Assembly: GCF_013185065.1 (NCBI RefSeq)
Contig: NZ_JAAVTO010000018.1
Span: forward strand, 1 to 43,195
DNA: 43,195 nt
Source of the DNA: Adlercreutzia sp. ZJ473
GTDB taxonomy: Bacteria; Actinomycetota; Coriobacteriia; Coriobacteriales; Eggerthellaceae
Direction: 5' to 3'
Shown: one piece after another, positions 7,396 to 20,916 of the stretch
Position numbering within the stretch: position 1 is the stretch's first letter
Layout of the letters: every line of letters begins with the position of its first letter
Notes under the pieces: generated by a model
Told to the model about the DNA's origin: nothing
Databases searched by the model: none
The model's input: only the letters and a program-made list of their open reading frames with translations
Made by a program: the position numbers and the translations under genes

Positions 7396-7431
7396 CTGAT
7401 CACCCGAATGCGTAACGCCCGTTCACCAGAG

Positions 7432-7472: not shown

Positions 7473-7484
7473 TCGCGCAAGCCG

Positions 7485-8306: not shown

Positions 8307-8332
8307 ACGCGCTCCTTTCGGTTTGCTTCCAC

Positions 8333-8503: not shown

Positions 8504-8535
8504 ATGCTAACAGAGGGCAGAGTCGGCCGCAATGC

Positions 8536-8541
8536 TATAAT
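8536..8541 (+). promoter_or_regulatory. Extended -10 promoter for the 8575 gene
   Basis: TGCTATAAT at 8533-8541 is a perfect extended -10 box, 33 bp before the start codon of the gene at 8575. No clear -35. Confidence 0.5.
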
Positions 8542-8565
8542 CGGCGGAGTCACAAAATATTACAA
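8537..8565 (-). promoter_or_regulatory. Candidate terC promoter overlapping the divergent promoter
   Basis: Reverse-strand TTGTAA (8560-8565) and GATTAT (8537-8542) are spaced 17 bp. Transcription would start near 8528, just before the riboswitch. The -10 overlaps the plus-strand -10 at 8536-8541, so the two promoters should exclude each other. Confidence 0.4.
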
Positions 8566-8574
8566 GGAGTTTGC

Positions 8575-9405
8575 ATGGCATTCCAGCTTCCCTTTGACTT
8601 CATGCGCGAGCCTGCGCGCGCGCAGCGCCCACGGGCCGCCGCGGCGCCGCTGCCCGGCTTCGAGAACGAGAGCATCCGCTACTTTGACGCGCCGGCGCTC
8701 TCGCGCCCCCTTGAGATGCCGCAGTCGGTGCGCGCCGGGGCGCTCGCCGGCATGCTCGTGGCCGCGGTCATCGGCGGGATCATCCTGTTCCAGTACTTCG
8801 ACGCCATCGTGAACGCGCCTGCGCGCGAGCAGGCGGCGCTTGAGGAGAACCTCGCGCGCGCGGTGCCCGTCGAGGTGCCGGCGATCATGTCGTTCATGAC
8901 GATGAGCGACGAGGAGGTGATGGGCGCGCTCAACGCGTCGGGCGCCACCCTGTACGAGCGCGTGGCGCCGGGCACCTCCGAGGACGGCAGCTTCGAGGTC
9001 ATCAAGCTGCCCGAGGGCGTGACGGTGGCCGACGCGGGCGCGATGTACGTCGCCGGCATCGACAACCTGGGCGCGGCCGACGCCGTGCGCCTGCTCAACG
9101 GCGCGTGGGACCTCACCGTGAACCACACGAACGGCTCGCTGGTGCGCGTGCGCTACGCCGACTTCACCTCGCTGTCCGTCCAGGAGGCCGTGCAGAGCGC
9201 CATCAACGCCGCCGGGCTCGGCGAGTGCGCCATCGACGACTCGGGCGTCGACGAGTCGGGCAACACCTACGCGGCCGGCGTGATCGAGAGCGAGGGCAAC
9301 GTCTACAACTGGCGCGTGTCCGCCCTGCCGCTCTCCGAGATGTACGACATCAGCGGCGTCCCCGAGACCGCCAGCTACGTCGGGATCAAGCTGACGAGCG
9401 CATAA
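8575..9405 (+). CDS. Membrane-anchored protein of unknown function
   Basis: A 276-residue protein I do not recognise. An Arg/Ala-rich cytoplasmic N-terminus (about 1-50) precedes one TM helix near residues 58-78 (LAGMLVAAVIGGIILFQYF). The remaining ~195 residues are acidic and would lie outside, with no cysteine motif and no obvious catalytic residues; regions such as EGNVYNWRVSALPLSEMYDI suggest a beta-rich fold. The ATG at 8575 has CAAGGAG eight bases upstream and a TATAAT box. It stands alone and is divergent from terC. Confidence that it is a real gene is high because of the codon pattern, promoter and ribosome site. Confidence 0.8.
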   Translation: MAFQLPFDFMREPARAQRPRAAAAPLPGFENESIRYFDAPALSRPLEMPQSVRAGALAGMLVAAVIGGIILFQYFDAIVNAPAREQAALEENLARAVPVEVPAIMSFMTMSDEEVMGALNASGATLYERVAPGTSEDGSFEVIKLPEGVTVADAGAMYVAGIDNLGAADAVRLLNGAWDLTVNHTNGSLVRVRYADFTSLSVQEAVQSAINAAGLGECAIDDSGVDESGNTYAAGVIESEGNVYNWRVSALPLSEMYDISGVPETASYVGIKLTSA

Positions 9406-9450
9406 GGGAGAAGGGCGCGCTCGCTGCCAAAGCGGCTGGTGGGCGCTTCG

Positions 9451-10034: not shown

Positions 10035-10150
10035 GGATTGAGGACGCGCCTTTCGGTTTCTGTGCCACCCGCACTCCCCGCTAATGCTTCTTTTCCCTCA
10101 TGCGAAAACGAGGCTCCCGCTCATGAATCGGGAGTCCTTCGAGTTTCGAC

Positions 10151-10188
10151 GCAAAGCAAAACAGCCCCGAGGAATCCCTCGGGGCTGT
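10151..10188 (-). terminator. Terminator of the tRNA Gly-Cys-Gly group
   Basis: Stem ACAGCCCCGAGG (10161-10172) and CCTCGGGGCTGT (10177-10188), perfect 12 bp with a four-base loop. On the reverse strand it is followed by TTTTGCTTTGC. Confidence 0.85.
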
Positions 10189-10199
10189 AAGATAGACAA

Positions 10200-10275
10200 T
10201 GGAGCGGACAACGGGGTTCGAACCCGCGACCCCCACCTTGGCAAGGTGGTGCTCTACCAGCTGAGCCATGTCCGC
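10200..10275 (-). tRNA. tRNA-Gly (GCC)
   Basis: Reverse-strand cloverleaf with acceptor GCGGACA/TGTCCGC, anticodon stem CCACC/GGTGG around TTGCCAA (anticodon GCC), T-loop GGTTCGAACC and an encoded CCA end. Its 73-nt body is identical to the copy at 10439-10514. Confidence 0.97.
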
Positions 10276-10297
10276 ATGTTAAGTTGTCAAAGCCGAA

Positions 10298-10371
10298 TGG
10301 AGGCGACGCCCGGATTCGAACCGGGGGTGAAGGCTTTGCAGGCCTCTGCCTTACCACTTGGCCACGTCGCC
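10298..10371 (-). tRNA. tRNA-Cys (GCA)
   Basis: Reverse-strand cloverleaf with acceptor GGCGACG/CGTCGCC, anticodon loop CTGCAAA (anticodon GCA), T-loop GGTTCGAATCC and an encoded CCA. It lies between two tRNA-Gly genes. Confidence 0.97.
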
Positions 10372-10394
10372 ATTTTCAAGCTTGCCGTCATATA

Positions 10395-10430
10395 AGAGGC
10401 TGGCCAAAACGTAAGCCTGACCAGCCTCAA
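10395..10430 (-). terminator. Stem-loop between tRNA-Gly and tRNA-Cys
   Basis: GAGGCTGG (10396-10403) pairs with CCAGCCTC (10421-10428); on the reverse strand it is followed by TTATAT. It could be a weak terminator or an RNA-processing signal inside the tRNA transcript. Confidence 0.45.
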
Positions 10431-10438
10431 TGTGACAA

Positions 10439-10514
10439 TGGAGCGGACAACGGGGTTCGAACCCGCGACCCCCACCTTGGCAAGGTGGTGCTCTACCAGC
10501 TGAGCCATGTCCGC
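10439..10514 (-). tRNA. tRNA-Gly (GCC), second copy
   Basis: Identical in its 73-nt body to the tRNA-Gly at 10200-10275, with the same encoded CCA. It is the first gene of the Gly-Cys-Gly group and has a clear promoter upstream. Confidence 0.97.
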
Positions 10515-10527
10515 GTCGCGAAGAGAT

Positions 10528-10556
10528 ATATTAGAGGAACTTAAACTCTCATGCAA
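10528..10556 (-). promoter_or_regulatory. Promoter of the tRNA Gly-Cys-Gly group
   Basis: Reverse-strand TTGCAT (10551-10556) and TAATAT (10528-10533) with a 17-bp spacer, 13 bp before tRNA-Gly. The 324-bp stretch from 10515 to the tRNA-Val holds this promoter, degenerate GGTTGCCAAGGG-type repeats (10596-10665) and the tRNA-Val terminator, and no credible gene. Confidence 0.75.
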
Positions 10557-10805
10557 GCATTTTTTTCAACTTTTTTACGAACGCCCGCCGAGGGTTGGTT
10601 GCCAAGGGTTGGCCAAGGGTTTGCCGAAGGCTGGTTGTCGAGGGCTGTTTGGGTTGGTTGCCAAGTACTATGCAACACCGTGCTGAGCAATTCAACCTGC
10701 GAGCGCCTGCCGAGGCGCACGCAGCACGCACCAGCTCGCACGCGGCACGCACCGGCTCACACCGCGCCCCAGCTCGCATTGGCCGACATGCGCGCCAAGG
10801 GCAGC

Positions 10806-10828
10806 AAAATAGCGGCCGCAAAGCCGCT
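10806..10828 (-). terminator. Probable terminator of tRNA-Val
   Basis: AGCGGC (10811-10816) pairs with GCCGCT (10823-10828); the reverse strand continues ATTTTGC. Short stem, moderate support. Confidence 0.5.
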
Positions 10829-10837
10829 TTGAGTTCA

Positions 10838-10913
<76 letters not shown>

Positions 10914-10955
10914 ACGTATGTGGTGTGTGTCGCGTTTCCGCGTCAGCGATAGATT

Positions 10956-10983
10956 ATTTTAGCAGAACCAAAATCCATGGCAA
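10956..10983 (-). promoter_or_regulatory. tRNA-Val promoter
   Basis: Reverse-strand TTGCCA (10978-10983), 16-bp spacer, and an extended -10 TGCTAAAAT (box 10956-10961), about 42 bp before the tRNA. Confidence 0.7.
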
Positions 10984-11101
10984 GACCTCATTTTGAAAAA
11001 CTTTCTCCCTACGCCGAGATGCGCCAAGTCCCCTGATGCGCCGTCCCAACCCTGCCTCACGCCCATGAACCAAAGTGACGGCACGAATATACTTTCGTCC
11101 G

Positions 11102-11130
11102 TTCTTCCAACGCCCCAAGACGCATAAAAT
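11102..11130 (+). promoter_or_regulatory. Candidate promoter for the two-component genes
   Basis: TTCTTC (11102-11107), 17-bp spacer, TAAAAT (11125-11130), 150 bp before the kinase start. The 367-bp gap 10914-11280 otherwise contains the tRNA-Val promoter and the repeat at 11147-11204. Confidence 0.4.
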
Positions 11131-11146
11131 AGAATGGGAAACGACG

Positions 11147-11204
11147 GAGCGCCCGAGCAACGGACCCAAGCAACCGAGCGCCCGAGTAACGGACCCGAAC
11201 AACG
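11147..11204 (+). repeat. 29-bp tandem repeat in the kinase leader
   Basis: Two units (11147-11175 and 11176-11204) sharing GAGCGCCCGAG and AACGGACCC; weaker echoes continue to about 11250. It would be transcribed as part of the leader of the histidine kinase mRNA. Confidence 0.6.
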
Positions 11205-11280
11205 GGCCCAAATGGCGGGACACCCGAGCAACGGAGCACCCCTCCGAGAACGAGCAGACAGAAAGCGAGAGCATCCTGTG

Positions 11281-12447
11281 ATGAACAACGCAGATGCAGC
11301 AGAGAGCCTATGGAAGAGGCGATACGACGACCTCATCGGGTTCACGCAGTCGCTCTCCTGGTTGGACGATCGGGCCGACTTCTACAAGGACCTGGCCTGC
11401 AACCTCAAGAGAATATCCGGGGCAGACGGCGTGAACATACGACTGCTGTCCCCCGCGCAAGACACCTTCGTCCTCTACGCCTTCTGCGGGGACGTGGAGG
11501 CAGGCGCCATGCAGGAGTACGAGTTCCTCTCGGCAGGCGCCGGAAGGATGCCTCGCCTGATCGAGACAGGGCAGCCCATCGTCTTCGACTTCGCAAACCC
11601 CGCAAGCGACGACATCGACTGGGACCGCGGCGTTGACGACGGCTTCTCATGCGCGGTGATCGTCGCGCTGCCCGGGGCGCACGGGATGCTGGGGGCTGCG
11701 GACTTCCTCTTCCACAGCCCGCGAAGCTGGACGCCCGACGACGTCGACTGGCTGAGCAGCCTCGGCAAGTTCGTCGGCGCGATCGTCGGCAACGCGCTGC
11801 TGTCGGACAACATGTTCAGCCTGCGCGTAGCCGAGGAGCGCCGCAGCCTCTCGAACGAGATCCACGACAACATCGCGCAGTCGATCAGCGTGATCTCGCT
11901 CGAGGTCGACAGCGCGCTCGATTCCCTCAAGCACCACGACGACGACACGCTCACGCGCAACCTCGACCTGCTCAAGAGAGCCAGCGTCGAGGTGGAGGCC
12001 GTGGTTCGGGGCGAGCTGGACAACCTCAGGATGAACGCAGGCTTTGGCGGAACGTCGACCATGGCTCAGCTGACCCAGATGATCGAGGCCTTCTGCACGC
12101 GATGGGGGCTTGAGCTCGAGCTGACGACAAGCGATGGCATCGAGGGCCAGGTCATCCCGCAGCGCACCATGTCGCAGCTGACGCGCGTCGTGAACGAGGC
12201 GCTCGTCAACGTGATGAAGCACGCCCAAGCGCACCGCGTGCTGATCGCGCTCAAGGCGAAGGACGGCGGCCTCGAGATATGCGTCGAGGACGACGGGGTG
12301 GGATTCGACGTGGAAGGCATCAGCCCGTCCCATTTGGGGTTGAGGATCATGAGGGAGCGCCTGGAGAACATCAACGCCTCCCTTGAGATCACGTCCTCCC
12401 CCGGAGGGGGAACGCGCTTGACCATGTCCATCCCCTACCTTATGTGA
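11281..12447 (+). CDS. Soluble GAF-domain sensor histidine kinase (NarX/HisKA_3 type)
   Basis: A 388-residue histidine kinase without membrane segments. Residues about 20-175 look like a GAF sensor domain (GADGVNIRLL, AVIVALPGAHGMLGAADFLF). The HisKA_3 dimerisation domain has the phospho-acceptor His195 in SNEIHDNIAQS, and the ATPase domain has the N box VNEALVNVMKHAQ, the G1 box VEDDGVGFD and the G2 region GLRIMRERLE...SPGGGTRLTMSIP. It probably senses a cytoplasmic small molecule and phosphorylates the response regulator that starts 11 bp downstream. The start is ATG 11281; longer in-frame versions read through the repetitive leader. Confidence 0.92.
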   Translation: MNNADAAESLWKRRYDDLIGFTQSLSWLDDRADFYKDLACNLKRISGADGVNIRLLSPAQDTFVLYAFCGDVEAGAMQEYEFLSAGAGRMPRLIETGQPIVFDFANPASDDIDWDRGVDDGFSCAVIVALPGAHGMLGAADFLFHSPRSWTPDDVDWLSSLGKFVGAIVGNALLSDNMFSLRVAEERRSLSNEIHDNIAQSISVISLEVDSALDSLKHHDDDTLTRNLDLLKRASVEVEAVVRGELDNLRMNAGFGGTSTMAQLTQMIEAFCTRWGLELELTTSDGIEGQVIPQRTMSQLTRVVNEALVNVMKHAQAHRVLIALKAKDGGLEICVEDDGVGFDVEGISPSHLGLRIMRERLENINASLEITSSPGGGTRLTMSIPYLM

Positions 12448-12457
12448 GCAGGGTCGC

Positions 12458-13129
12458 TTGGCGAAACCGCTTGACAGAACCAACGTCCTCGTAGTGGACA
12501 ACCATAGCCTTTATCGCGAGGGCCTGGTCGCGCTCTTCGAGAAGTGGGATGACTTCGACGTGATAGGCGAGGCGACCGACGGTGCCGAGGCCATCGAGTT
12601 CTGCCGCCATTGGCCGCCTGACGTGGTCCTGATGGACCTCAAGATGCCCTGCGTTGACGGCATCGAGGCGACGCGCGTCATCTGCGCCGAGAACCCCGGC
12701 ATCGCGGTCATAATCCTCTCCGTCCACGCCGAAGAGCAGAGCGTCATAGCGTCGATCCGCAACGGCGCGCGCGGGTACCTGCTGAAGAACACCCATGCCA
12801 AGCGCCTGCACAGCCATCTGAGAAACGTCGTCAAAGGCGCGAGCGCCTTGTCAGACGAGGTGTCCGCCATCTGCCTCGAGTACATCAGGCACATCCCGCG
12901 GGAGCATGCGCACGCCTTCCCTCGCCCTGAGCCGGACAACCTCACCGACCACGAGAAGCAGCTCATCCGCCTGCTCGCCATGGGGTATTCGAACCGCGAC
13001 ATCGGAGAGCGCCTGTTCATCGGCGAGGGAACCGTGAAGAAGCAGGTGAGCTCCATGCTCGCCAAGCTCGGCCTGGAGAACCGCGTGCAGGCGGCGGTGT
13101 ATGCGCTGAGAAGCGGGATCGCCGAATAG
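12458..13129 (+). CDS. NarL/LuxR-family response regulator
   Basis: A 223-residue regulator: receiver domain (about 8-125) with phospho-Asp60 in VVLMDLKMP, the switch serine in ILSVHA and lysine in GYLLKNT; a linker; and a C-terminal LuxR helix-turn-helix (about 158-220) with LTDHEKQLIRLLAMGYSNRDIGERLFIGEGTVKKQV. The N-terminal acidic pair is Asp14-Asn15 (VVDNHSL) instead of the usual Asp-Asp, so one Mg2+ ligand is changed. TTG start at 12458 with GAGCAGGG upstream; coupled to the kinase. It is the obvious candidate regulator of the molybdoenzyme operon that follows. Confidence 0.93.
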   Translation: MAKPLDRTNVLVVDNHSLYREGLVALFEKWDDFDVIGEATDGAEAIEFCRHWPPDVVLMDLKMPCVDGIEATRVICAENPGIAVIILSVHAEEQSVIASIRNGARGYLLKNTHAKRLHSHLRNVVKGASALSDEVSAICLEYIRHIPREHAHAFPRPEPDNLTDHEKQLIRLLAMGYSNRDIGERLFIGEGTVKKQVSSMLAKLGLENRVQAAVYALRSGIAE

Positions 13130-13138
13130 GCCCTCAGG

Positions 13139-13154
13139 GGGAACTTTCGTTCCC
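13139..13154. promoter_or_regulatory. Dyad GGGAAC-N4-GTTCCC, possible regulator site
   Basis: A perfect 6-bp inverted repeat around TTTC, ten bases past the regulator stop and upstream of the molybdoenzyme operon. It has no T run, so a terminator is less likely than an operator. I found no second copy in the window. No clear sigma-70 promoter is visible between here and 13287, which fits an activator-dependent promoter. Confidence 0.35.
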
Positions 13155-13286
13155 GAATCATACCTGACAGTTCTCCTTGTCCGTGCCGAAAGACGGTTTC
13201 GGGCGGGCACTGCTTTTCCCTAACCTTTACCTCGTAACCGGCTGGACGCATTCGGCGCCCAGCCCCAAAGCACGAACAAGGAAGAG

Positions 13287-13511
13287 GTGAGGAGCGTGCC
13301 GCGTTTCACGAAGGACACCAAGCTGAAGGTAATCGTCGACGATCCCGAGGCAAGCGCCATCCTGCAGGAGTGGTTCCCGATGGACCTGCATGGCTCGATG
13401 GTGAAGATGGCCTACGGCATGTCGCTGGAGAAGTGCTTCAGCTTCCCCCAGGTGAAGATCACCGACGAGGAGAAAGAGCAGATCTACCAGCAGCTGGCCG
13501 ATCTTGGCTAA
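13287..13511 (+). CDS. Small protein of unknown function heading the molybdoenzyme operon
   Basis: A 74-residue protein with no signal peptide or membrane segment. Its pattern (TKLKVIVDDPEASAILQEWF, then MVKMAYGMSLEKCFSFPQVKI and EKEQIYQQLADL) is predicted helical and resembles a ~65-residue module I associate with the ends of some larger enzymes, but I cannot name it. GTG 13287 follows AAGGAAGAG; a second GTG at 13296 is also possible and would shorten it by three residues. Its place between the regulator and the large subunit suggests an accessory or maturation role, which is only an inference. Confidence 0.7.
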   Translation: MRSVPRFTKDTKLKVIVDDPEASAILQEWFPMDLHGSMVKMAYGMSLEKCFSFPQVKITDEEKEQIYQQLADLG

Positions 13512-13532
13512 GCGGTTTCGCTGATCGGGAAG

Positions 13533-13573
13533 ATGCGAGCGGACGTCGGCAAGCGTCGACGGTCCGCTCGCAT
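13533..13573 (+). other. 12-bp perfect stem-loop before the large-subunit gene
   Basis: ATGCGAGCGGAC (13533-13544) pairs exactly with GTCCGCTCGCAT (13562-13573), loop 17 nt, ending a few bases before the ribosome site of the next gene. No T run. It may be an RNA-processing or stability element, or control translation of the large subunit. Confidence 0.6.
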
Positions 13574-13586
13574 TACATGAGAGGAA

Positions 13587-16199
13587 ATGAGCATGGGTAA
13601 CAAGATCGACAAGCGGGTCATCAGGCCGGTCGCATGCAGCTCCACAGGCGGGGACCCTGTTGTCGTCGAGTCCTCGGACGGCAAGATCGTGCGCATCCGA
13701 CCGTGCAATTGGACGGAGAGCTACACGGAGGAGGAGCTGAAGGGCACGCTCTGGGAGCTGAACGCAAGGGGGAAGAAGCTCAAGTGCCCCACCAAGGCGA
13801 TGCCCCCCTACTATGCGCTGGCCTACAAGAAGAAGACCTACTCGAAAGACCGCGTCAAGTATCCGCTGAAGCGCGTTGACTGGGAGCCCGGCGGCGACCC
13901 CGACAAGATCAACGCCCAGAACCGAGGCAAGAGCGGATACGAGCGCATCTCCTGGGACGAGGCCATCGACATCCTCGAGTCCGAGATCCGCCGCATGTAC
14001 GACACCTACGGCCCCTACGGGATCCTGGCCATCGGCTACGACGGGCACAAGGAGTCCAAGTGCGTGCACTACGGGTCGGGCTGCCAGATGCAGGTGCTCC
14101 GCATGATCGGCGGCTACATCCGCGAGGTCAGGACGCCTGACTCCGTCGAGGGCTTCTACTGGGGCGGCAAGCACGTGTGGGGCACGGGCGCCTGGGACGG
14201 CCTGGGCATCCCCGAAGAGTACTACAACACCATGAAGGACGTCTCCGAGAACACCGAGTTTCTGGTCATGCAGGCAGGCGACCTGGAGACCACGGCGAAC
14301 TACTCCTCCCAGTTCCAGAGCTACATGATGAAGTACTGGCTGGACCTCGGCATTGAGATGGTCGCGGTCGACCCGTTCGGAACCTACACGGCGATGGCCC
14401 ATGACGAGATCACGTGGATCCCCATCTTGCCCAACACCGACGCGGCCCTGGACTTCGCCTTGATCCACGTCTGGCTCAAGGAGGGCCTCTTCGACAAGGA
14501 GTACGTTGACACCCACACCATTCACTTCGACAAGATGGTCGACTACGTGATGGGCAAGGACGACGGGATCGAGAAGACCCCTGCGTGGGCGTCCGAGATC
14601 TGCGGGATCCCCGAGTGGACCATCAAGGCCCTCGCGCGCAAGTGGGGAACCTCGGTGACTACGATCGCCCACTTCTGCGGCGCGCACATCCGCGGGCCCT
14701 ACAGCTTCGAGCCGGGGCGCACCGAGTACTACAAGCTGGCGATGCAGGGCATCGGCAAGCCCGGCGTCCAGATGGTTCACCTGTTCTCGTGGAATGTCGC
14801 GGAGCAGGTGGTTCCCAGCGTCGGCGGCATGCTCTCGTTCATGTACATGGGCCATGCGGACATGCAGGACATCCCGGGCCCGACCTCCCTTCCGCGAACC
14901 GCCGTCCACCACGCCATCATGGACGGCAAGTACGAGTGGTACGGAAGCCCCTCGATCATCATGTCCACGCCTGAGGACCAGTTCATCAAGCGCACCTATC
15001 CGTGCGAGGAGGCCGACGGCACCGAGTTCCACATGATCTGGTCCGAGAAGGCGTCGAACCAAGGCTCGTGGAACGGCGGCTTCTACCTCCAGGACGCCTA
15101 TCGCAACCCGAAGATCGAGTGCTTCGTGTCCAACCACCAGTGGATGCAGCAGGACACCATCTTCGCCGACCTCATCCTCCCCGTCACCACGTGCCTGGAG
15201 GAGGTTGACTCGATCGGGTCGAGCCAGGGCGGCTCGCTGTGCTTCTACGGCGTCCAAGACCGGGCATGCGACGTCGTGGGCGAGTCGAAGTCCGACTACG
15301 AGATCGCCGCCGAGCTCGCCAAGCGCTTCGGCATCTACGAGGAGTACACCCGGGGCCTGAGCGTCGAGGAGGAGATCGCAGCCGCCTACGAGGAGTCGTT
15401 CATCAAGGACTTCATCAGCTTCGAGGACCTGAAGAAGAAGCAGTACTTCATCCCCCCGATGAACCCCGAATGGGAGGACATCCCCGCCGGGATGCGCGAG
15501 TTCTACGAGGACCCGGAAAAGCACCCGCTCCACACGCCCTCTGGCAAGATCGAGTTCTACTCGGAAGCGCTTGAGCAGCACTTCCCCGACGACAAAGAGC
15601 GCCAGCCGCTCGCGAGGTGGACGATCGGCGGCTCGAGGGAAGACGGGTACGCCCACGACGAGTCCCAGTGGGGCGAGAAGGCGAAGACCTATCCGCTGCT
15701 GCTGAACACGAGCCCCGGGCGCTGGCGCATCCACGTCCAGAACGACGACATCTGCTGGCTTCGCGAGATTCAGACGTGCAAGATCAAGGGCAAGGACGGG
15801 TACATGTACGAGCCTGTCTGGATGTGCCCCGAGCTTGCCCGGGAGCGCGGCATCGAAAGCGGAGACATCGTCAAGGTGTTCAACGACCAGGGCATCGTCT
15901 TGGGGGCTGCGAGGATCTCGGAGCGCGTTCTCCCTCGTTCGATCAAGATGGACAAGGGCGCGCACCCCGACCCGATCGCCCCGCACATCGACCGCGGTGG
16001 CTGCACCAATCTCATCAGCCCGCCCGATCCCATCTCGAAGCACTGCGAGGGCTTCGTCGTGACCGGGTACCTGGTCGACGTCGCGAAGCTGGAGGACGCC
16101 GAGATGGAGCAGTGGAAGAAGGACTATCCGGAGAGCTTTGCCCGCGCCTACGACCCCGCTTCGGGTTCGAGCCGCGCCGGCTGGGTAGTGAAGGAGTAG
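13587..16199 (+). CDS. Molybdopterin oxidoreductase, pyrogallol-phloroglucinol transhydroxylase-like large subunit
   Basis: An 870-residue DMSO-reductase-superfamily enzyme with no Tat signal and no N-terminal Fe-S cysteine motif, so a cytoplasmic Mo-bis-MGD subunit. Length and sequence landmarks follow Pelobacter AthL (875 residues): LWELNARGKKLKCP, YPLKRVDWEPGG, YERISWDEAIDI, PDSVEGFYWGGKHVWG, LPVTTCLEEVDS, HTPSGKIEFYSEAL and the C-terminal DPIAPHIDRGGCTNLISP. Asp185-Ser186 align with the AthL Asp174-Ser175 pair (Ser is the Mo ligand) and His154 with the catalytic His144 region; the stretch that carries Tyr404 in AthL looks different here. The fold and subunit type are secure; the substrate (pyrogallol, another catechol or polyphenol) is not. 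ATG 13593 has better ribosome-site spacing than 13587. Confidence 0.9.
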   Translation: MSMGNKIDKRVIRPVACSSTGGDPVVVESSDGKIVRIRPCNWTESYTEEELKGTLWELNARGKKLKCPTKAMPPYYALAYKKKTYSKDRVKYPLKRVDWEPGGDPDKINAQNRGKSGYERISWDEAIDILESEIRRMYDTYGPYGILAIGYDGHKESKCVHYGSGCQMQVLRMIGGYIREVRTPDSVEGFYWGGKHVWGTGAWDGLGIPEEYYNTMKDVSENTEFLVMQAGDLETTANYSSQFQSYMMKYWLDLGIEMVAVDPFGTYTAMAHDEITWIPILPNTDAALDFALIHVWLKEGLFDKEYVDTHTIHFDKMVDYVMGKDDGIEKTPAWASEICGIPEWTIKALARKWGTSVTTIAHFCGAHIRGPYSFEPGRTEYYKLAMQGIGKPGVQMVHLFSWNVAEQVVPSVGGMLSFMYMGHADMQDIPGPTSLPRTAVHHAIMDGKYEWYGSPSIIMSTPEDQFIKRTYPCEEADGTEFHMIWSEKASNQGSWNGGFYLQDAYRNPKIECFVSNHQWMQQDTIFADLILPVTTCLEEVDSIGSSQGGSLCFYGVQDRACDVVGESKSDYEIAAELAKRFGIYEEYTRGLSVEEEIAAAYEESFIKDFISFEDLKKKQYFIPPMNPEWEDIPAGMREFYEDPEKHPLHTPSGKIEFYSEALEQHFPDDKERQPLARWTIGGSREDGYAHDESQWGEKAKTYPLLLNTSPGRWRIHVQNDDICWLREIQTCKIKGKDGYMYEPVWMCPELARERGIESGDIVKVFNDQGIVLGAARISERVLPRSIKMDKGAHPDPIAPHIDRGGCTNLISPPDPISKHCEGFVVTGYLVDVAKLEDAEMEQWKKDYPESFARAYDPASGSSRAGWVVKE

Positions 16200-16209
16200 G
16201 TGCAGACAG

Positions 16210-17010
16210 ATGAAGACGTTGCTTATCGACTTGAACAAATGCACGGGATGCTACGCCTGCCAGGTAGGATGCAAGGACGAGCATTGCGAGCAGTCGTGGA
16301 TGCCCTACGCGGAGGCGCAGCCCGAGACCGGACAGTTCTGGATGAGGGTGGACGAGCAGGAGCGCGGCAAGCGCCCCCACGTCAAGGTGACCTACGTCCC
16401 CACGCCGTGCCAGCATTGCGCTGACGCGCCGTGCATGAAGGCAGCCAAGGACGGCGCCGTGTACCGGCGCGAGGACGGCCTGGTGATCGTGGACCCGAAG
16501 AAGGCGAAGGGGCAGAAGGCCATCAAGGAGGCGTGCCCGTACGGGGCCGTCTACTGGAACGACCTTCTGGACATCCCGCAGAAGTGCACCGGCTGCGCTC
16601 ACCTCATCGACGAGGGCGACACCATCACGGTCCCTCGCTGCTATGACAACTGCGTTCACGGCGCGATCTCATGGGGAGAGGAGTCTGACCTCGACCTCGA
16701 GGGGGCCGAGAGGCTGCACCCCGAGTACGGGACGACTCCGAGGATCTGGTACAAGGGGCTGCCCAAGAGGTTCATCGCAGGCCGCGTGTACGATCCGATC
16801 GAGAAGGAGGTCGTCGTAGGCGCCACGGTGACCGCCACGGGAGAGGCCGGGACGTTCACGGCGCAGACGAACTGGATCGGGGACTTCTGGCTGCGTGACA
16901 TGCCGGAAGGCGACTGGGAGGTGACCATAGAGTCGGCTGGCAAGAAGAAGTCGATCAAGGTCTCCACCACCGAAGAGGACGTCGGGCTCGGCGACGTTCC
17001 CTTGAGCTAG
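16210..17010 (+). CDS. Iron-sulfur electron-transfer subunit with C-terminal Cna-B-like domain (AthS-like)
   Basis: A 266-residue partner of the preceding enzyme. Residues 1-165 hold ferredoxin-type motifs: CTGCYACQVGC (near 12-22), CQHCADAPC (near 67-75), ACPYG, CTGCAHL (near 121-127) and CYDNC, enough for three [4Fe-4S] clusters. Residues about 185-266 form a beta-rich domain (AGRVYDPIEKEVVVGATVTA, FWLRDMPEGDWEVTIE) of Cna-B type. This exact combination is characteristic of the small subunit of pyrogallol transhydroxylase. It starts 11 bp after the large subunit stop, with AAGGAG inside that gene's end, so the two are co-translated. Confidence 0.9.
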   Translation: MKTLLIDLNKCTGCYACQVGCKDEHCEQSWMPYAEAQPETGQFWMRVDEQERGKRPHVKVTYVPTPCQHCADAPCMKAAKDGAVYRREDGLVIVDPKKAKGQKAIKEACPYGAVYWNDLLDIPQKCTGCAHLIDEGDTITVPRCYDNCVHGAISWGEESDLDLEGAERLHPEYGTTPRIWYKGLPKRFIAGRVYDPIEKEVVVGATVTATGEAGTFTAQTNWIGDFWLRDMPEGDWEVTIESAGKKKSIKVSTTEEDVGLGDVPLS

Positions 17011-17023
17011 CTTCCTTCTTTCA

Positions 17024-17070
17024 GGGGGAAGGGGAGCGCCCGGACCGAGACCCGGCGCTCCCCTTCCCCC
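17024..17070 (+). other. 17-bp perfect stem-loop between the small subunit and the VOC genes
   Basis: GGGGGAAGGGGAGCGCC (17024-17040) pairs exactly with GGCGCTCCCCTTCCCCC (17054-17070), loop 13 nt. Without a T run on the plus strand it is unlikely to be a full terminator; it could protect the 3' end of an athLS-like message and lower expression of the downstream genes. Confidence 0.75.
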
Positions 17071-17111
17071 CACCGCTTGACCGCAAACCATCGCGTCGAA
17101 AGAGACATGCA

Positions 17112-17624
17112 ATGTACGAGACTCTTCTCAACAAATACGGGGTACGTCAGCTCGGGTACTACGTCGAGGACATCGACGCAACCGCCCGCGAGATGGCACG
17201 GCTCTTAGGCGCCGGCCCCTTCATCGATGCAGGGGAAAGCACCCCCGAAGCCTGCACCTACCGGGGGAAGGACTCGACGCTCACGACACGCGTGGCGTTG
17301 GGCCAGTTCGCCAACATCCAGGTCGAGCTCATCCAGGTCACGAGCGAAGGCGAGAACGTCTACTCGGAGATGGGCCGCTACGGGCTCCACCATGTCTGCA
17401 TCTGGACCGACGACCTCGAGCAGACCGTCAAGGAGTTCGAGGAGGCCGGCTTTGAGCTCGCCATGCGCTTGACGAGCTCCGGCTTCGAGGTCGCCTACTT
17501 CGACTGCCGCGACGCCTTCGGGCATTACATCGAGGTATCCGCCCCCCAGGAGGACTTCTACGAGGGGCTGGCGGCCCTGGCCGAAGAATGGGACGGCGAG
17601 AACGCCCTGATGGGCATCTGCTAG
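17112..17624 (+). CDS. VOC-fold (glyoxalase/epimerase superfamily) protein 1
   Basis: A 170-residue protein with two beta-alpha-beta-beta-beta halves. Candidate metal ligands are in VRQLGYYVEDID (Gln replacing the usual His), IQVELIQVT (Glu), LHHVCIWTDD (His) and FGHYIEVSAP (Glu), with a GAGPF loop near residue 34. Superfamily members are isomerases, epimerases, lyases or dioxygenases; in an anaerobe an isomerase or lyase is more plausible. It lies 101 bp after the small subunit and 18 bp before a second VOC gene, suggesting the pair acts as a heterodimer or on successive products of the ring-modifying enzyme. Confidence 0.85.
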   Translation: MYETLLNKYGVRQLGYYVEDIDATAREMARLLGAGPFIDAGESTPEACTYRGKDSTLTTRVALGQFANIQVELIQVTSEGENVYSEMGRYGLHHVCIWTDDLEQTVKEFEEAGFELAMRLTSSGFEVAYFDCRDAFGHYIEVSAPQEDFYEGLAALAEEWDGENALMGIC

Positions 17625-17642
17625 GCTAAAGGAGCTTTACGC

Positions 17643-18254
17643 ATGAAGAACTACAAGGACTACTTCAAAGGGCGCGACTTCGTCCATCAGATCGGCTTCT
17701 ACTCGCCGGATGGCGAGGCGTTCGTCCGCACGCACAACGAGCTGTTCGGGTCGGGCCCGTTCTACACCACCACCAACAAGTTCAGCAAGGTGATCTACCG
17801 GGGAAAGGAGCTTGAGAAGCCCTTCGAGCTCCAAGCCTACTACGGAGCCTGGGGTTCCCACTCCGTCGAGGTCGTCCAGCAGCTCACCCCCGGCGACTCC
17901 ATGTACACCGACTACAACGACATGGACAAGCCCGGCATCAACCATATCCACATGTTCGTCGAGAGCCTCGAGGAGGCCGAGGAGGCATGCGAGGCGCTGG
18001 GCATTCCCATCGTGGTGATCGGGTACAACGACCTTTCCGGCGCTCTCGAGAAATGCGCGCAGATGGGCATCGACCCCGCGACCTTGGGCCTCGACGAGAG
18101 CAAGATAGGGTTCATGGTCGTCGACCTGACGGAGGACCTCGGCATGATGGTCCAGCTCGTAGACGACAACGCCCGGCTGATCCACGACATGGTGAAGGCC
18201 GGAGGCGAGGCATGGGACGGCGAGACCGACCTCATCCGCCCGATGGGCGCGTAA
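17643..18254 (+). CDS. VOC-fold (glyoxalase/epimerase superfamily) protein 2
   Basis: A 203-residue paralogue-like VOC protein, longer than its neighbour. Ligand candidates are FVHQIGFYSPD (His), HSVEVVQQLTP (Glu), INHIHMFVES (His) and LGMMVQLVDD (Gln). It shares the SGPFY loop and the YRGKE segment with VOC protein 1. The ATG follows AAAGGAG by six bases, so translation is tightly linked to VOC 1. Reaction unknown. Confidence 0.85.
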   Translation: MKNYKDYFKGRDFVHQIGFYSPDGEAFVRTHNELFGSGPFYTTTNKFSKVIYRGKELEKPFELQAYYGAWGSHSVEVVQQLTPGDSMYTDYNDMDKPGINHIHMFVESLEEAEEACEALGIPIVVIGYNDLSGALEKCAQMGIDPATLGLDESKIGFMVVDLTEDLGMMVQLVDDNARLIHDMVKAGGEAWDGETDLIRPMGA

Positions 18255-18271
18255 GCAGCCCCCACCGCCAA

Positions 18272-18312
18272 GATGCGCCATGGGGCCGCGCGTGCCTTGC
18301 CCATGGCGCATC
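18272..18312 (+). other. 13-bp perfect stem-loop between VOC 2 and the SDR gene
   Basis: GATGCGCCATGGG (18272-18284) pairs exactly with CCCATGGCGCATC (18300-18312), loop 15 nt; no T run. Its core TGCGCCATG also forms the arm of the terC terminator at 8339-8393. Confidence 0.65.
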
Positions 18313-18346
18313 AGTTCATTCGACACGCAAGACCGAGGAGTTCAAA

Positions 18347-19129
18347 ATGGCAGCAGACAGGTACACGGTTCAAGATCGAGTAGCGATCATCACGGGGGCG
18401 AGCTCAAGGGGCATCGGCAACGCGGCCGCGAAGGAGCTTGCAGCCCACGGCGCGAAGGTCTGCCTCGTCGCCCGCCGCGAGGACAAGCTCAAGGACGCGG
18501 TGGGCGAGATAGCCGAGGCGGGAGGCACGGCGATGTACGTCGTCGCCGACGTATCCCGGGAGGATGACTGCAAGCGCGCCGTCGAGGAATGCGTCGCTCG
18601 CTTCGGAAAGCTCGACATCATGGTGCTTGCCTCCGGCATTGCGGGAACGCCTCCCCAGTCCCTCGACGACATGTTCGACACGGAGGAGTACCGGCGCGTG
18701 CTCTCCGTCAACCTCGACGGGGTTTTCTTCATGGTGAAGCACGGGTACGCCGAATGCGCCAAGGGCGGCCATGGCTCGATCGTCTTCATCAACTCCCTGG
18801 CGGGCTTCAAGGCAGCGGGGTTCTTGCCCTACTCGGCCTCGAAGGGCGCGATTCGCTCCTGGACGAAGCTGCTCGCCAAGAAGCTCGCCCCCCTGGGAGT
18901 CCGCGTCAACGCCATCATTCCGGGCATGATCGACACGGACATGACCCATCCCGCAGGCTACGACGAGCTGTTCGAGGGGATAGCGGCCAACGCAGTCAAG
19001 GGAATTCCCCTGGGCCGCCTGGGAACCCCCGCAGACTGCGCGAAGGGGATCCTCTTCCTGGCGTCAGACGCCTCTGAGTGGACCACTGGATACAGCCTCG
19101 CCATAGACGGCGGCGAGCTCTGCTCGTAG
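18347..19129 (+). CDS. Short-chain dehydrogenase/reductase
   Basis: A 260-residue classical SDR. The nucleotide motif ITGASSRGIG (near 17-26) has one residue more than the usual TGxxxGIG spacing; the NNAG motif is replaced by ASGIAG; catalytic Ser in FINSLAG and YSASK (near 160-164) are present; the C-terminal part has PGMIDTDM and SLAIDGGE. Being last in the operon with a ring-hydroxylation enzyme, it could reduce a phloroglucinol-type product (phloroglucinol reductase is an SDR) or a ketone side chain; this is inference. ATG 18347 has GAGGAG eight bases upstream; longer frames run back through the hairpin. Confidence 0.92.
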   Translation: MAADRYTVQDRVAIITGASSRGIGNAAAKELAAHGAKVCLVARREDKLKDAVGEIAEAGGTAMYVVADVSREDDCKRAVEECVARFGKLDIMVLASGIAGTPPQSLDDMFDTEEYRRVLSVNLDGVFFMVKHGYAECAKGGHGSIVFINSLAGFKAAGFLPYSASKGAIRSWTKLLAKKLAPLGVRVNAIIPGMIDTDMTHPAGYDELFEGIAANAVKGIPLGRLGTPADCAKGILFLASDASEWTTGYSLAIDGGELCS

Positions 19130-19146
19130 GCGAGCCTTCCGCTACG

Positions 19147-19198
19147 GCGGCGAGGGCGGCCCTTCCCCAGCGGGAGGAGTCGTCCTCGCCGCTTTTTT
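19147..19198 (+). terminator. Terminator of the molybdoenzyme operon
   Basis: GCGGCGAGG (19147-19155) pairs with CCTCGCCGC (19184-19192), followed directly by six Ts. It lies 18 bp past the SDR stop. Confidence 0.88.
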
Positions 19199-19250
19199 GC
19201 GCCCTCTGCGCCGCGCGTCTCCCTTGCCGCGGCGCGCGGCCTGCGTCGCT

Positions 19251-19401
19251 CCCCCTTTCGGCGTCTCTAGGGCGCCCTGAGTCATCTCCCTGCTTGCTGC
19301 TTGCTGCTTGCTGCTTGCTGCTTGCTCCCCTCCTCGGCGCCTCTGGGGCCTCCCCTGAACCATCCCCCAGCGTGTTTCCCCTCCTCGGCGCCTCTGGGGC
19401 G
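19251..19401. repeat. Mixed short repeats downstream of the SDR operon
   Basis: Five perfect tandem copies of the heptamer TGCTTGC (19291-19325), flanked by three copies of a CCCCTCCTCGGCGCCTCTGG word (about 19251, 19327, 19379; the first diverged). The 284-bp gap to the CDF gene contains no gene beyond the terminator. Confidence 0.75.
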
Positions 19402-19413
19402 CCCTGGCGGGCG

Positions 19414-20319
19414 CTAGCGGGATGACTCGTCCTCGCCGTAGGGCTCGATGTGGACGAGGACCTCCTTCACGTTGGGGTGGCGCTTGATGACCTCGCGCTC
19501 GAAGGCGTCGCCGAGCTCGTGGGCCGCGCGCACCGTCATCTCGGGGTCGACGAGCGCATGCAGGTCGCAGTACACCTCCGCCTCGGTGCCGCGCGTGCGC
19601 ACGCAGTGCACCTCGACGAGGCCCGGCATCTCCCGCGCGATGGACTCGATGTCCTCGGGCGGGATGCACGCGTGGTCGGACAGCGTGCGCAGCGCCGTGC
19701 GGAACACGCCCACCGCCGACAGGAGGATGAACACCGTCACGATGAGCGCCATGATGGGGTCAGCCGCCGGGAAGCCCGCCGCCACGAAGCCGAGGCCCGC
19801 GATGACGCCGATGGACACGAACGCGTCGGAGAGCGTGTGGGCCGCGTCGGCCGCGAGGATCTCGCTGCGCAGCTCCTTGCCGCGCCGCCGCTCGTAGAGC
19901 GTGACGCCCAGGTTCACCGCGAGCGTGGCCACCATGACCACGAACGACATGGGCGTGACCTCGGCGGTGTAGCTCTGGCTCATGAGCTTGCCCACCGCTC
20001 CCGAGCCCACCTCGAAGGCCGCGAGCACGAGCAGCACGCCGATGGCCATGGAGCCGTACGTCTCGAACTTCGCATGCCCGTAGGGATGCCCCGCGTCAGC
20101 CGGGCGGCCCGCCACGGCGATGCCCACGAGCCCGATGATGTTGCCGAGCGAGTCGAACACCGAGTGGATGCCGTCAGCCTGCATCGAGGCGGAGCTCGAG
20201 GCCAAGCCGTAGAAGAACTTCGCCGCCGCCACCGCCAGGTTGAGCACGAACACGATCCAGAGCACCCGCTCCACGCTGCGCGCGTGGTCGGTCTTAACCG
20301 AGGAGCTGAAACGAGCCAT
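19414..20319 (-). CDS. Cation diffusion facilitator family transporter
   Basis: A 301-residue CDF transporter, exporting divalent metals (Zn, Fe, Mn or Co) in exchange for protons. Six hydrophobic segments are visible in the first 210 residues, with metal-site motifs HSVFDSLGN and AHTLSDAFV (two HxxxD-type pairs), followed by a cytoplasmic ferredoxin-like domain (ARE MPGLVEVHCVRTRGTEAEVYCDLHALVD). ATG 20319 with AGGAGG upstream is preferred over the TTG at 20337. Metal specificity is not readable. Confidence 0.92.
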   Translation of the reverse strand: MARFSSSVKTDHARSVERVLWIVFVLNLAVAAAKFFYGLASSSASMQADGIHSVFDSLGNIIGLVGIAVAGRPADAGHPYGHAKFETYGSMAIGVLLVLAAFEVGSGAVGKLMSQSYTAEVTPMSFVVMVATLAVNLGVTLYERRRGKELRSEILAADAAHTLSDAFVSIGVIAGLGFVAAGFPAADPIMALIVTVFILLSAVGVFRTALRTLSDHACIPPEDIESIAREMPGLVEVHCVRTRGTEAEVYCDLHALVDPEMTVRAAHELGDAFEREVIKRHPNVKEVLVHIEPYGEDESSR

Positions 20320-20366
20320 GCGCCCTCCTCTCCGCAAGACGGGATCAAAAAGACGGGATCTGATGC

Positions 20367-20392
20367 AAAAAAGCCCCGCTCAGCGGGGCTTT
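20367..20392 (-). terminator. Terminator of tRNA-Leu
   Basis: AAGCCCCGCT/AGCGGGGCTT (20371-20391) is a perfect stem; on the reverse strand it continues TTTTTTGC. It follows the tRNA by about 11 bp. Confidence 0.88.
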
Positions 20393-20402
20393 CGATTGCA
20401 AA

Positions 20403-20491
20403 TGGTGTCGGAGGCGGGATTTGAACCCGCACACCCGGTATGTGGGCACTAGCACCTCAAGCTAGCGTGTCTGCCGTTCCACCACTCCGAC
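20403..20491 (-). tRNA. tRNA-Leu (GAG)
   Basis: Reverse-strand class II tRNA with acceptor GTCGGAG/CTCCGAC, anticodon stem CTAGC/GCTAG around TTGAGGT (anticodon GAG), a long variable arm (GTGCCCACATACCGGGT), T-loop GGTTCAAATCC and an encoded CCA. Confidence 0.96.
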
Positions 20492-20501
20492 ATGCTTTTT
20501 T

Positions 20502-20541
20502 GCAGCGACAAATAGTTTAGCATAATGTCGCTGCGATGCAA
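20502..20541 (-). promoter_or_regulatory. tRNA-Leu promoter spanned by an inverted repeat
   Basis: Reverse-strand TTGCAT (20536-20541), 16-bp spacer, extended TGCTAAACT (-10 at 20514-20519). A perfect 9-bp inverted repeat GCAGCGACA (20502-20510) and TGTCGCTGC (20526-20534) brackets the -10 box. Confidence 0.65.
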
Positions 20542-20584
20542 GAAATATTCTCAACTTTTCTTGCCGCGTCGCGCTGCGCTGGCG

Positions 20585-20839
20585 CTAGGCGCCGATCGTC
20601 CCATGCGGGTAGATGACCATGAGCACCAGAAGCGACAGCATGAACACGATCGCGCACGCGATGGTGATGCGGTCGAGGTTCTTCTCGATGACGCTCGTGC
20701 CCGTCTGGGTGGAGTACATGGAGCTCGCGATCATGTCGGAGATGCCCGTGCCCTTGCCCGAGTGCATGAGGATGAACACGATCATGCCCACGCCCGACAG
20801 CACGAGCAGGATGAGAAACACAATAACCAGAGGATTCAA
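20585..20839 (-). CDS. secG: Preprotein translocase subunit SecG
   Basis: An 84-residue SecG, the small accessory subunit of the SecYEG protein-export channel. Two TM helices (NPLVIVFLILLVLSGVGMIVF and ITIACAIVFMLSLLVLMVIY) flank the conserved loop LMHSGKGTGISDMI. The start is TTG at 20839. It follows the glycolytic genes gpmI-tpiA-pgk, the common order in Gram-positive bacteria, and has its own promoter. Confidence 0.94.
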   Translation of the reverse strand: MNPLVIVFLILLVLSGVGMIVFILMHSGKGTGISDMIASSMYSTQTGTSVIEKNLDRITIACAIVFMLSLLVLMVIYPHGTIGA

Positions 20840-20887
20840 AGCTTCACTCTTCTCTCGGAGGAATAACTACCTTTACACAAATTCGTT

Positions 20888-20916
20888 ATTATAGCGCAAC
20901 CTCCGCTACGAGGCAA
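20888..20916 (-). promoter_or_regulatory. secG promoter
   Basis: TTGCCT (20911-20916, inside the last codons of gpmI), 17-bp spacer, perfect TATAAT (20888-20893). secG can therefore be transcribed apart from the glycolytic operon. Confidence 0.7.

What the first reader, a model, noticed from the sequence alone, without database searches (positions are those of the whole stretch)
11281..19198. Candidate aromatic-ring transhydroxylation/dehydroxylation operon with a dedicated two-component system
Seen: a soluble GAF kinase and NarL-type regulator, a 74-residue protein, an 870-residue Mo enzyme, an Fe-S subunit with Cna-B domain, two VOC proteins and an SDR, all on one strand, closed by a terminator at 19147-19198. 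Known: the large/small subunit pair with this domain make-up is that of pyrogallol-phloroglucinol transhydroxylase (Pelobacter AthL/AthS), related to gut catechol dehydroxylases of Eggerthella and Gordonibacter; phloroglucinol reductase is an SDR. Inferred: the operon senses and converts a polyphenol, with VOC and SDR enzymes processing the product. The VOC pair is not part of any pathway of this type that I know.
Basis: partly seen in the sequence, partly recalled or inferred. Interest (0 to 1): 0.85.

Follow-up and report, generated by a model that had tools for sequence, protein, structure and literature searches.

The report
AthL-type molybdenum operon with epimerase-like proteins
A gut bacterium of the genus Adlercreutzia carries a self-contained, probably switchable gene set built around a molybdenum enzyme of the family that moves hydroxyl groups on plant phenols, joined to epimerase-like and ketone-reducing enzymes in a combination that recurs in its bacterial family but whose substrate is unknown.

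Summary
In detail: eight same-strand genes (kinase, NarL-type regulator, small protein, AthL-type Mo subunit, AthS-type Fe-S subunit, two VOC proteins, SDR) at 11281-19129, closed by a strong terminator. The Mo/Fe-S pair is AthL/AthS-like, but not close to the gut catechol dehydroxylases. It belongs to a well-supported clade (A) in Eggerthellaceae; 31 of 42 clade-A copies examined have VOC genes within 8 kb, against 0 of 20 sampled copies of the sister clade. The phloroglucinol ring-cleavage genes beside an Oscillospiraceae AthLS were not found here. Both VOC models match methylmalonyl-CoA epimerase best; the equol racemase DDRC is in the same Pfam family but distant. In Adlercreutzia sp. ZJ176 the whole unit is missing between the same tRNA and efflux genes. 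Most likely an inducible accessory operon: the Mo enzyme rearranges, removes or adds ring hydroxyls, VOC proteins epimerise or tautomerise the resulting ketone, the SDR reduces it. The substrate, a phenol or another cyclic compound, cannot be read from sequence.

The parts
11005..19380 (.). approximate extent of the segment that is missing in Adlercreutzia sp. ZJ176 (about 260-310 bp there instead)
   Evidence: blastn of the window against L141: matches 10792-11004 (inverted, 84%) and 19381-24365 (96%), nothing between
11281..12447 (+). sensor histidine kinase without an evident membrane segment: weak GAF + HisKA_3 + HATPase_c
12458..13129 (+). NarL-type response regulator (TTG start)
13296..13511 (+). 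small protein of unknown function (p74; 71 aa from GTG 13296, or 74 aa from 13287)
   Evidence: 6 relatives upstream of clade-A large subunits, 43-93% identical; no Pfam family
13587..16199 (+). AthL-type Mo catalytic subunit, clade A; His154, Asp185, Ser186 align with AthL His144, Asp174, Ser175
16210..17010 (+). AthS-type Fe-S subunit, 12 cluster Cys (three [4Fe-4S] sites as in AthS) plus C-terminal CarboxypepD_reg-like domain
17024..17070 (+). strong intercistronic RNA hairpin without T tract
   Evidence: z -6.5, 0 of 200 shuffles
17112..17624 (+). VOC1, epimerase-type VOC protein; Gln13, Glu72, His94, Glu141 invariant in 26 aligned rows
17643..18254 (+). VOC2, epimerase-type VOC protein, 81-83% identical in six loci of other genera
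18272..18312 (+). intercistronic hairpin, 13-bp stem (energy not exceptional)
   Evidence: z -0.9
18347..19129 (+). classical SDR, probable ketoreductase
19146..19198 (+). intrinsic terminator
   Evidence: (z -4.0), sequence

Best explanation
A self-contained accessory catabolic operon. The kinase/NarL-type regulator pair senses a small molecule or its effect and switches on the unit. The soluble AthL/AthS-type enzyme, with no membrane anchor encoded beside it, carries out Mo-dependent hydroxyl chemistry (transfer, removal or addition) on a polyhydroxylated ring and thereby yields or exposes a ring ketone/enol. VOC1 and VOC2 act as metal-dependent epimerases or tautomerases at the carbon next to that ketone, and the SDR reduces the ketone with NAD(P)H. 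SHOWN: gene order, families, conserved Mo-site residues and Fe-S cysteines, clade-specific neighbourhood, epimerase-like VOC folds (models), absence at the same site in a close relative. INFERRED: the reaction order, the VOC chemistry (from fold and from the DDRC precedent), the sensing, and that the ring is aromatic. Substrate not determined.
For: AthL/AthS are the best solved matches of both subunits (as a profile 605 bits against 333 for DMSO reductase). Ser186/Asp185/His154 invariant in 41 aligned relatives. Clade A is one clade, SH-aLRT 100. VOC within 8 kb in 31 of 42 clade-A copies against 0 of 20 sampled clade-B copies; SDR 19 of 42 against 0 of 20 (L082 and L086 were fetched for their VOC hits, without them 29 of 40). 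Of the 18 VOC2 places found in 138 genomes, the window's own included, 15 lie within about 7 kb of a clade-A large subunit; the other 3 are on contigs of 4.3, 6.3 and 15.1 kb. VOC models: best match 3gm5, annotated as a putative methylmalonyl-CoA epimerase, Z 13.6 and 16.1. DDRC, a racemase known from this bacterial family, is PF13669 like VOC1 and lies in a cluster with an SDR. The whole unit is absent at the same site in Adlercreutzia sp. ZJ176.
Against: The nearest relative (94% large subunit, L032) has no VOC/SDR directly behind its small subunit; a second AthLS-VOC1-SDR-MFS-SDR-VOC2 operon with a TetR gene begins within about 1 kb, and its own regulator is only 49% alike. The 78% relative (L033) is followed by a Zn-alcohol dehydrogenase and a different SDR (27%), with no VOC found in its 13-kb contig. 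L070 (10 kb on both sides), L071 (5.5 kb), L072 (10 kb downstream) and L080 (8 kb) have no VOC. So the exact set in the window is a mosaic. The hairpins may uncouple VOC/SDR expression. VOC2 lacks the usual fourth Glu ligand (Gln171; pattern recalled). No expression, substrate or activity data exist here. Clade A lacks two residues near the Mo site that AthL and the other rows share (Trp after the Ser ligand, His at 164).
Confidence: 0.45

Rival explanations
1. A pyrogallol-phloroglucinol transhydroxylase operon in the strict sense: L-S makes phloroglucinol, the SDR is phloroglucinol reductase, the VOC proteins serve ring opening.
For: AthL/AthS kinship. A related AthLS (40%) in an Oscillospiraceae MAG really lies beside SDR, cyclase (PF04199), 3HCDH-type dehydrogenase and BKACE genes, which fits the set described for phloroglucinol degradation (mBio 2023 passages; that the published cyclohydrolase and lyase are of these two Pfam families is recalled).
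Against: With that cluster's proteins as queries, no relative of the cyclase or BKACE in the 68 other loci searched or the window; the dehydrogenase had one weak match (26%, L090) and the SDR matched many SDRs at 26-33%, the window's at 32%. The cyclase was not found in the window's own genome or five relatives while the control genome matched, nor in 138 genomes at E 1e-20 (no positive control in that set). Trp and His beside the Mo site, shared by AthL, the Oscillospiraceae pair and clade B, are replaced in all 25 clade-A rows examined. The stretch aligned with AthL Tyr404 is not conserved, in clade B and the Oscillospiraceae pair neither.
Confidence: 0.1
2. A resorcinol-hydroxylase-like (RhL/RhS) enzyme: net hydroxylation of a meta-diphenol ring, with VOC/SDR acting on the resulting quinone/ketone tautomer.
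For: RhL and the transhydroxylase are named side by side as Ser-ligated, cytoplasmic, aromatic-hydroxylating members in the MopB survey (passages); the Ser ligand found here fits both.
Against: No RhL sequence was compared; hydroxyhydroquinone-type genes were not looked for; a gut anaerobe gains little from oxidising a phenol unless the electrons are useful (inference).
Confidence: 0.12
3. A reductive system (dehydroxylation or deoxygenation, also of non-phenolic substrates such as epoxides or N/S-oxides) serving as an electron sink, with VOC/SDR as detoxification or side enzymes.
For: DMSO and TMAO reductases are the second-best solved matches (193 bits and below); several AthL-like paralogues per genome (six separate places in G085) resemble the radiation of gut reductases.
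Against: No membrane anchor or quinone-linked subunit among the eight ORFs; the small subunit is AthS-type; VOC linkage is clade-specific (31 of 42 against 0 of 20), which generic detoxification does not predict.
Confidence: 0.25
4. An equol-like pathway: VOC proteins racemise and the SDR reduces an isoflavanone/flavanonol, with the Mo enzyme acting on its phenolic ring.
For: DDRC (ifcA), located by its published primer in G102, is PF13669 and lies with an SDR, a 486-aa flavoprotein and a 644-aa NADH:flavin oxidoreductase.
Against: VOC1 resembles DDRC only at profile level (hhalign probability 82%), and the window's SDR is 25% identical to that cluster's SDR. The equol cluster's NADH:flavin oxidoreductase had a relative in 0 of 48 clade-A loci and the flavoprotein in 1 of 48 (L050, 29%).
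Confidence: 0.08

Closest known systems
Pyrogallol-phloroglucinol transhydroxylase AthL/AthS (Pelobacter acidigallici, PDB 4v4c)
   Same: two subunits of the same size and domains; Ser Mo-ligand, His and Asp neighbours, 12 cluster Cys and C-terminal domain of the small subunit
   Different: separate clade; Trp after the Ser ligand is Val and His154 is Ser/Gly in clade A; Tyr404 stretch not conserved; operon has a two-component system, two VOC and an SDR and no phloroglucinol ring-cleavage genes
Resorcinol hydroxylase RhL/RhS (Azoarcus anaerobius)
   Same: the other aromatic-hydroxylating enzyme named in the Ser-ligated group (paper passages)
   Different: no sequence compared here
Gut catechol dehydroxylases (Dadh, Hcdh, Cadh and kin)
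   Same: Mo enzymes of the same superfamily, in the same bacterial family
   Different: nearest acetylene hydratase; Cadh and Dadh have Fe-S and membrane-anchor or further partner subunits (paper passages); the window's enzyme is nearest AthL and has no anchor gene
Equol cluster: dihydrodaidzein racemase DDRC (VOC) with an SDR reductase
   Same: VOC protein in a cluster with an SDR in Eggerthellaceae; same Pfam family PF13669
   Different: distant sequences; that cluster has an NADH:flavin oxidoreductase and a flavoprotein that clade-A loci lack but for one weak match
Anaerobic phloroglucinol cluster (PGR, DPGC, TfD, TAL; Clostridium scatologenes)
   Same: an AthLS relative lies beside a set of that type in an Oscillospiraceae MAG (L074)
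   Different: cyclase and BKACE not found in the other loci searched, cyclase not in the window's genome

Membership tests
Pyrogallol-phloroglucinol transhydroxylase (AthL/AthS) | large subunit homologous to AthL over full length | tested here: met
   605 bits, AthL residues 10-870; best of all solved chains
Pyrogallol-phloroglucinol transhydroxylase (AthL/AthS) | Mo-ligand Ser175 with Asp174 and His144 (roles of Asp and His recalled) | tested here: met
   Ser186, Asp185, His154 invariant in 41 rows
Pyrogallol-phloroglucinol transhydroxylase (AthL/AthS) | Tyr404 in the active site (role recalled) | tested here: inconclusive
   falls in a variable, gapped stretch near P0004 residue 414; alignment there is unsure
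Pyrogallol-phloroglucinol transhydroxylase (AthL/AthS) | small subunit with three [4Fe-4S] clusters and C-terminal beta domain | tested here: met
   12 Cys aligned, alignment 4-263 of 266
Pyrogallol-phloroglucinol transhydroxylase (AthL/AthS) | hydroxyl transfer between 1,2,3,5-tetrahydroxybenzene and pyrogallol | not testable with these tools
   no assay possible
Phloroglucinol degradation pathway | dihydrophloroglucinol cyclohydrolase and triacetate lyase genes nearby or in the genome | tested here: not met
   positive control L074/G521 found; queries from L074; the lyase was tested in loci only, not in the whole genome
Gut catechol dehydroxylases | closest characterised kin is acetylene hydratase, not AthL | tested here: not met
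   AthL 313 bits, acetylene hydratase 59; no acetylene hydratase at 1e-80
Gut catechol dehydroxylases | membrane-anchor partner (Eggerthella type) | tested here: not met
   no such gene among the eight ORFs; six of them checked for hydropathy, highest 19-residue mean 1.57
Resorcinol hydroxylase RhL/RhS | sequence placement with RhL | not tested
   no RhL sequence held
Epimerase-type VOC proteins (methylmalonyl-CoA epimerase-like) | VOC fold | tested here: met
   3gm5 first, Z 13.6 (VOC2, 140 aligned, rmsd 2.9) and 16.1 (VOC1, 136 aligned, rmsd 2.2); models from 16 and 26 sequences
Epimerase-type VOC proteins (methylmalonyl-CoA epimerase-like) | four conserved metal ligands | tested here: inconclusive
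   VOC1: Gln13, Glu72, His94, Glu141 invariant in 26 rows. VOC2: Glu76, His101, Gln171 and His15 invariant in 16 rows, residue 16 Gln or Met. Ligand pattern recalled
Dihydrodaidzein racemase DDRC | close sequence kinship of VOC1 or VOC2 to DDRC | tested here: not met
NarL-type two-component system | HisKA_3/HATPase kinase with REC-GerE regulator | tested here: met

The most novel reading that the evidence does not exclude
Clade A is an undescribed anaerobic pathway type of Eggerthellaceae: an AthL-family Mo enzyme coupled to one to three VOC epimerases/tautomerases and an SDR (with MFS transporter, SlyD-like FKBP and two orphan small proteins in sister operons), converting a polyphenol or polyphenol-like ring through a non-aromatic ketone without the known phloroglucinol route, and spreading as discrete inducible cassettes.
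Probability: 0.4. Interest if true: 0.8.

Novelty: new variant of a known kind. Interest (0 to 1): 0.55.

Why it matters
The MopB survey I saw in passages names only two aromatic-hydroxylating members of this Ser-ligated group, yet 51 of 138 genomes of this gut family held large-subunit relatives at E 1e-100. The clade defined here, with its VOC/SDR company, turns a group of unassigned molybdenum enzymes into a testable pathway separate from the better studied catechol dehydroxylases, and a natural presence/absence pair (window strain against ZJ176) offers a ready comparison of what it does to dietary compounds.

Tried and rejected
Catechol-dehydroxylase reading: rejected on scores and on two papers. 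Phloroglucinol reading: disfavoured for lack of cyclohydrolase/lyase relatives (one search had no positive control in its set, so one search repeated the question with one). SDR as phloroglucinol reductase by PDB search: uninformative, 368 chains match at 1e-20 and none of the 60 shown is named phloroglucinol reductase. DDRC: rejected as membership, kept as precedent. A mycotoxin idea (de-epoxidation by Eggerthella/Slackia and glyoxalase-type enzymes occur in that literature; search listings only) was not pursued: no gene evidence. att-like repeats: no exact repeat of 11 bp or more between 10300-11300 and 19130-19450. RNA families in 10900-20600: only tRNA-Leu. Response-regulator site: the RR-p74 gap showed no clear conservation with L032. 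P0003: no family at E 10 beyond one match at E 0.16. Families not listed among VIA-align matches are not thereby excluded. Literature searches: from titles and abstract starts, none of the listed papers describes this operon; lists were capped at 8-40 titles and only open-licence PMC papers are held. Papers seen as found passages: PMC7028382, PMC12771579, PMC11887054, PMC10470551, PMC12203004, PMC8898433, PMC6566806, PMC12645574, PMC10100899; all others as search listings only.

Rows dropped or selected: 42 clade-A places were counted; L082 and L086 had been fetched for VOC hits (29 of 40 without them). L068 and L069 duplicate L032 and L034 and were not counted. Many clade-A contigs end close to the genes. 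Clade B was sampled: 20 places of many. One search scored at most six candidates per genome and did not list all matches, so both clades may have further copies. Clade A was cut at 48% identity to P0004 before the count; the tree agreed. The tree is a quick one without bootstrap, with sequences under 780 residues left out.

Full report
Observation. reproduce the eight same-strand genes; searches give their families. HK (11281-12447) and NarL-type RR (12458-13129) are 10 bp apart; a gap of 157 or 166 bp, by start codon, precedes the small protein (best start GTG 13296); L (13587-16199) and S (16210-17010) are 10 bp apart; VOC1 (17112-17624), VOC2 (17643-18254) and SDR (18347-19129) follow, and an intrinsic terminator closes the unit (19146-19193 + T tract). 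A very stable hairpin without T tract lies between S and VOC1 (17024-17070), so VOC/SDR may be expressed at another level than L/S.

What the core is. The large subunit matches pyrogallol hydroxytransferase 4v4c_A first among all solved chains (E 5e-92; as a profile of 41 relatives 605 bits, DMSO reductase 333); the small subunit matches 4v4c_B first (E 1e-57) and keeps the 12 cluster cysteines. Ser186, Asp185 and His154 align with AthL Ser175, Asp174 and His144 and are invariant in all 41 rows. Two differences mark the clade: the residue after the Ser ligand is Val in 25 of 25 clade-A rows of that alignment but Trp in the 16 other rows and in AthL; residue 164 is Ser or Gly in 25 of 25 clade-A rows but His in the 16 others and at AthL 154. 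The AthL Tyr404 stretch is conserved in none of the groups, and the alignment there is unsure. So it is an AthL-family enzyme whose pocket probably differs.

Not a catechol dehydroxylase. Those enzymes cluster away from pyrogallol hydroxytransferase and nearest acetylene hydratase (PMC7028382 passages), and AthL served as one of their outgroups (PMC11887054 passages). P0004 scores 59 bits with acetylene hydratase against 313 with AthL, and no membrane-anchor gene is present.

Not, as far as tested, the phloroglucinol route. A relative in an Oscillospiraceae MAG (L074, 40%; isolate Tb.RUG.439) lies beside an SDR, a PF04199 cyclase, a 3HCDH-type dehydrogenase and a BKACE, which fits the published phloroglucinol set (PMC10470551 passages; the Pfam families of that set are recalled). 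With these as queries, cyclase and BKACE were found in L074 only among the 69 loci searched and the window; the dehydrogenase matched one further locus weakly and the SDR matched 28 further SDR stretches at 26-33%. The cyclase was not found in the window's genome and five relatives while the control genome matched.

Neighbourhood. In 138 genomes of the family, 51 have a large-subunit match at E 1e-100. The tree of 63 sequences makes clade A (38 rows with the window) one side of a branch with SH-aLRT 100 and the sister clade B (19 rows) with 99. Within 8 kb, clade A has VOC in 31 of 42 places, SDR in 19, FKBP in 25, TetR in 18, a NarL-type RR in 18; clade B has none of these in its 20 places (one short MFS match in L112). 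Most clade-A places without VOC end near a contig edge on the downstream side, but L070, L071, L072 and L080 have 5.5-10 kb there and still no VOC. Full operons such as the window genome's own second one (C53, L048) read TetR-L-S-VOC1-SDR-MFS-VOC2-FKBP-C4-VOC2. VOC2 stands out: 81-83% identical in six loci whose large subunits are only 54-58% identical, which suggests separate transfer or strong constraint. Against tight coupling: the nearest relatives (L032 94%, L033 78%, L034 64%) have differing neighbours, so the window's set is a mosaic of recurring parts.

VOC chemistry. AlphaFold models of VOC2 (pLDDT 89.5) and VOC1 (93.8) match 3gm5, a putative methylmalonyl-CoA epimerase, best (Z 13.6 and 16.1). 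VOC1 keeps a Gln-Glu-His-Glu quartet; VOC2 keeps His15, Glu76, His101 and Gln171. The published ifcA primer (PMC12645574 passages) hit one of 138 genomes; the gene there (L134:10373-10921, minus) is a 182-aa PF13669 protein in a cluster with an SDR, a 486-aa flavoprotein and a 644-aa NADH:flavin oxidoreductase. So a racemase known to act next to a ring ketone, in a cluster with an SDR, exists in this bacterial family within the same Pfam family; its sequence kinship to VOC1 is only remote, and relatives of the cluster's other two enzymes were found in 0 and 1 of 48 clade-A loci.

Mobility. G028 is taken to be Adlercreutzia sp. ZJ176 because its contig C2 has the same length (115,217) and match as the named record L069. 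There the window's flanks are mostly 94-96% identical (648-9410 in two pieces, 10150-10593, 19381-24365; one 197-bp piece 86%), but window 11005-19380 is missing; about 260-310 bp stand there, and the tRNA-Val segment lies in the opposite orientation. The third genome of the genus ends in a contig edge before the site and says nothing (L142). No recombinase gene lies among the eight ORFs and no flanking direct repeat was found. Whether this is gain here or loss there is open; the 94% relative in another genus (L032) speaks for transfer. ZJ176 has another clade-A operon (64%) elsewhere.

Verdict. A real, complete, probably inducible accessory operon of an AthL-type subfamily with VOC and SDR partners. 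The family kinship is firm, the pathway logic is inference, and the substrate is unknown. I rate it a new variant of a known kind.

Noticed in passing
L141 (Adlercreutzia sp. ZJ176) 14053-14527 against window 10792-19381: The operon is missing there and the neighbouring tRNA-Val gene is inverted relative to the window, with no recombinase gene in the unit or flanking repeat to explain it.
   Followed up: partly
L048 (window genome contig C53) 1731-11957: A second clade-A operon in the same genome: TetR, L, S, VOC1, SDR, MFS, VOC2, SlyD-like FKBP, 75-residue-type protein, another VOC2.
   Followed up: partly
L111 (window genome contig C64) 8892-11512: An AthL-type gene split into two ORFs of about 395 and 478 aa, probably a broken copy or an assembly error.
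   Followed up: no
L074 3519-13540: Oscillospiraceae MAG with AthLS beside a phloroglucinol-type gene set, a likely genuine pyrogallol-degrading cluster.
   Followed up: partly
L127 3804-13067 (another family of the phylum): AthLS with SDR, two MFS, TetR and a 691-aa relative of the equol cluster's NADH:flavin oxidoreductase (29%): another unexplained AthLS context.
   Followed up: partly
L044 11820-12047 and relatives (C4); FKBP e.g. L048 3062-3565: A tiny Trp/Gly-rich protein without any family and a SlyD-like FKBP with a CGCGC tail recur beside clade-A enzymes (16 and 25 of 42 places); perhaps enzyme maturation factors.
   Followed up: partly
L122 6621-7977, L124, L125, L126: A different VOC (about 160 aa) + SDR (266 aa) gene pair recurs in the family, with no AthL-type match in those loci, once beside a 770-aa relative (25%) of the equol cluster's NADH:flavin oxidoreductase.
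   Followed up: no
window 19289-19330: Short tandem TGCTTGC-type repeats behind the terminator (seen by eye).
   Followed up: no
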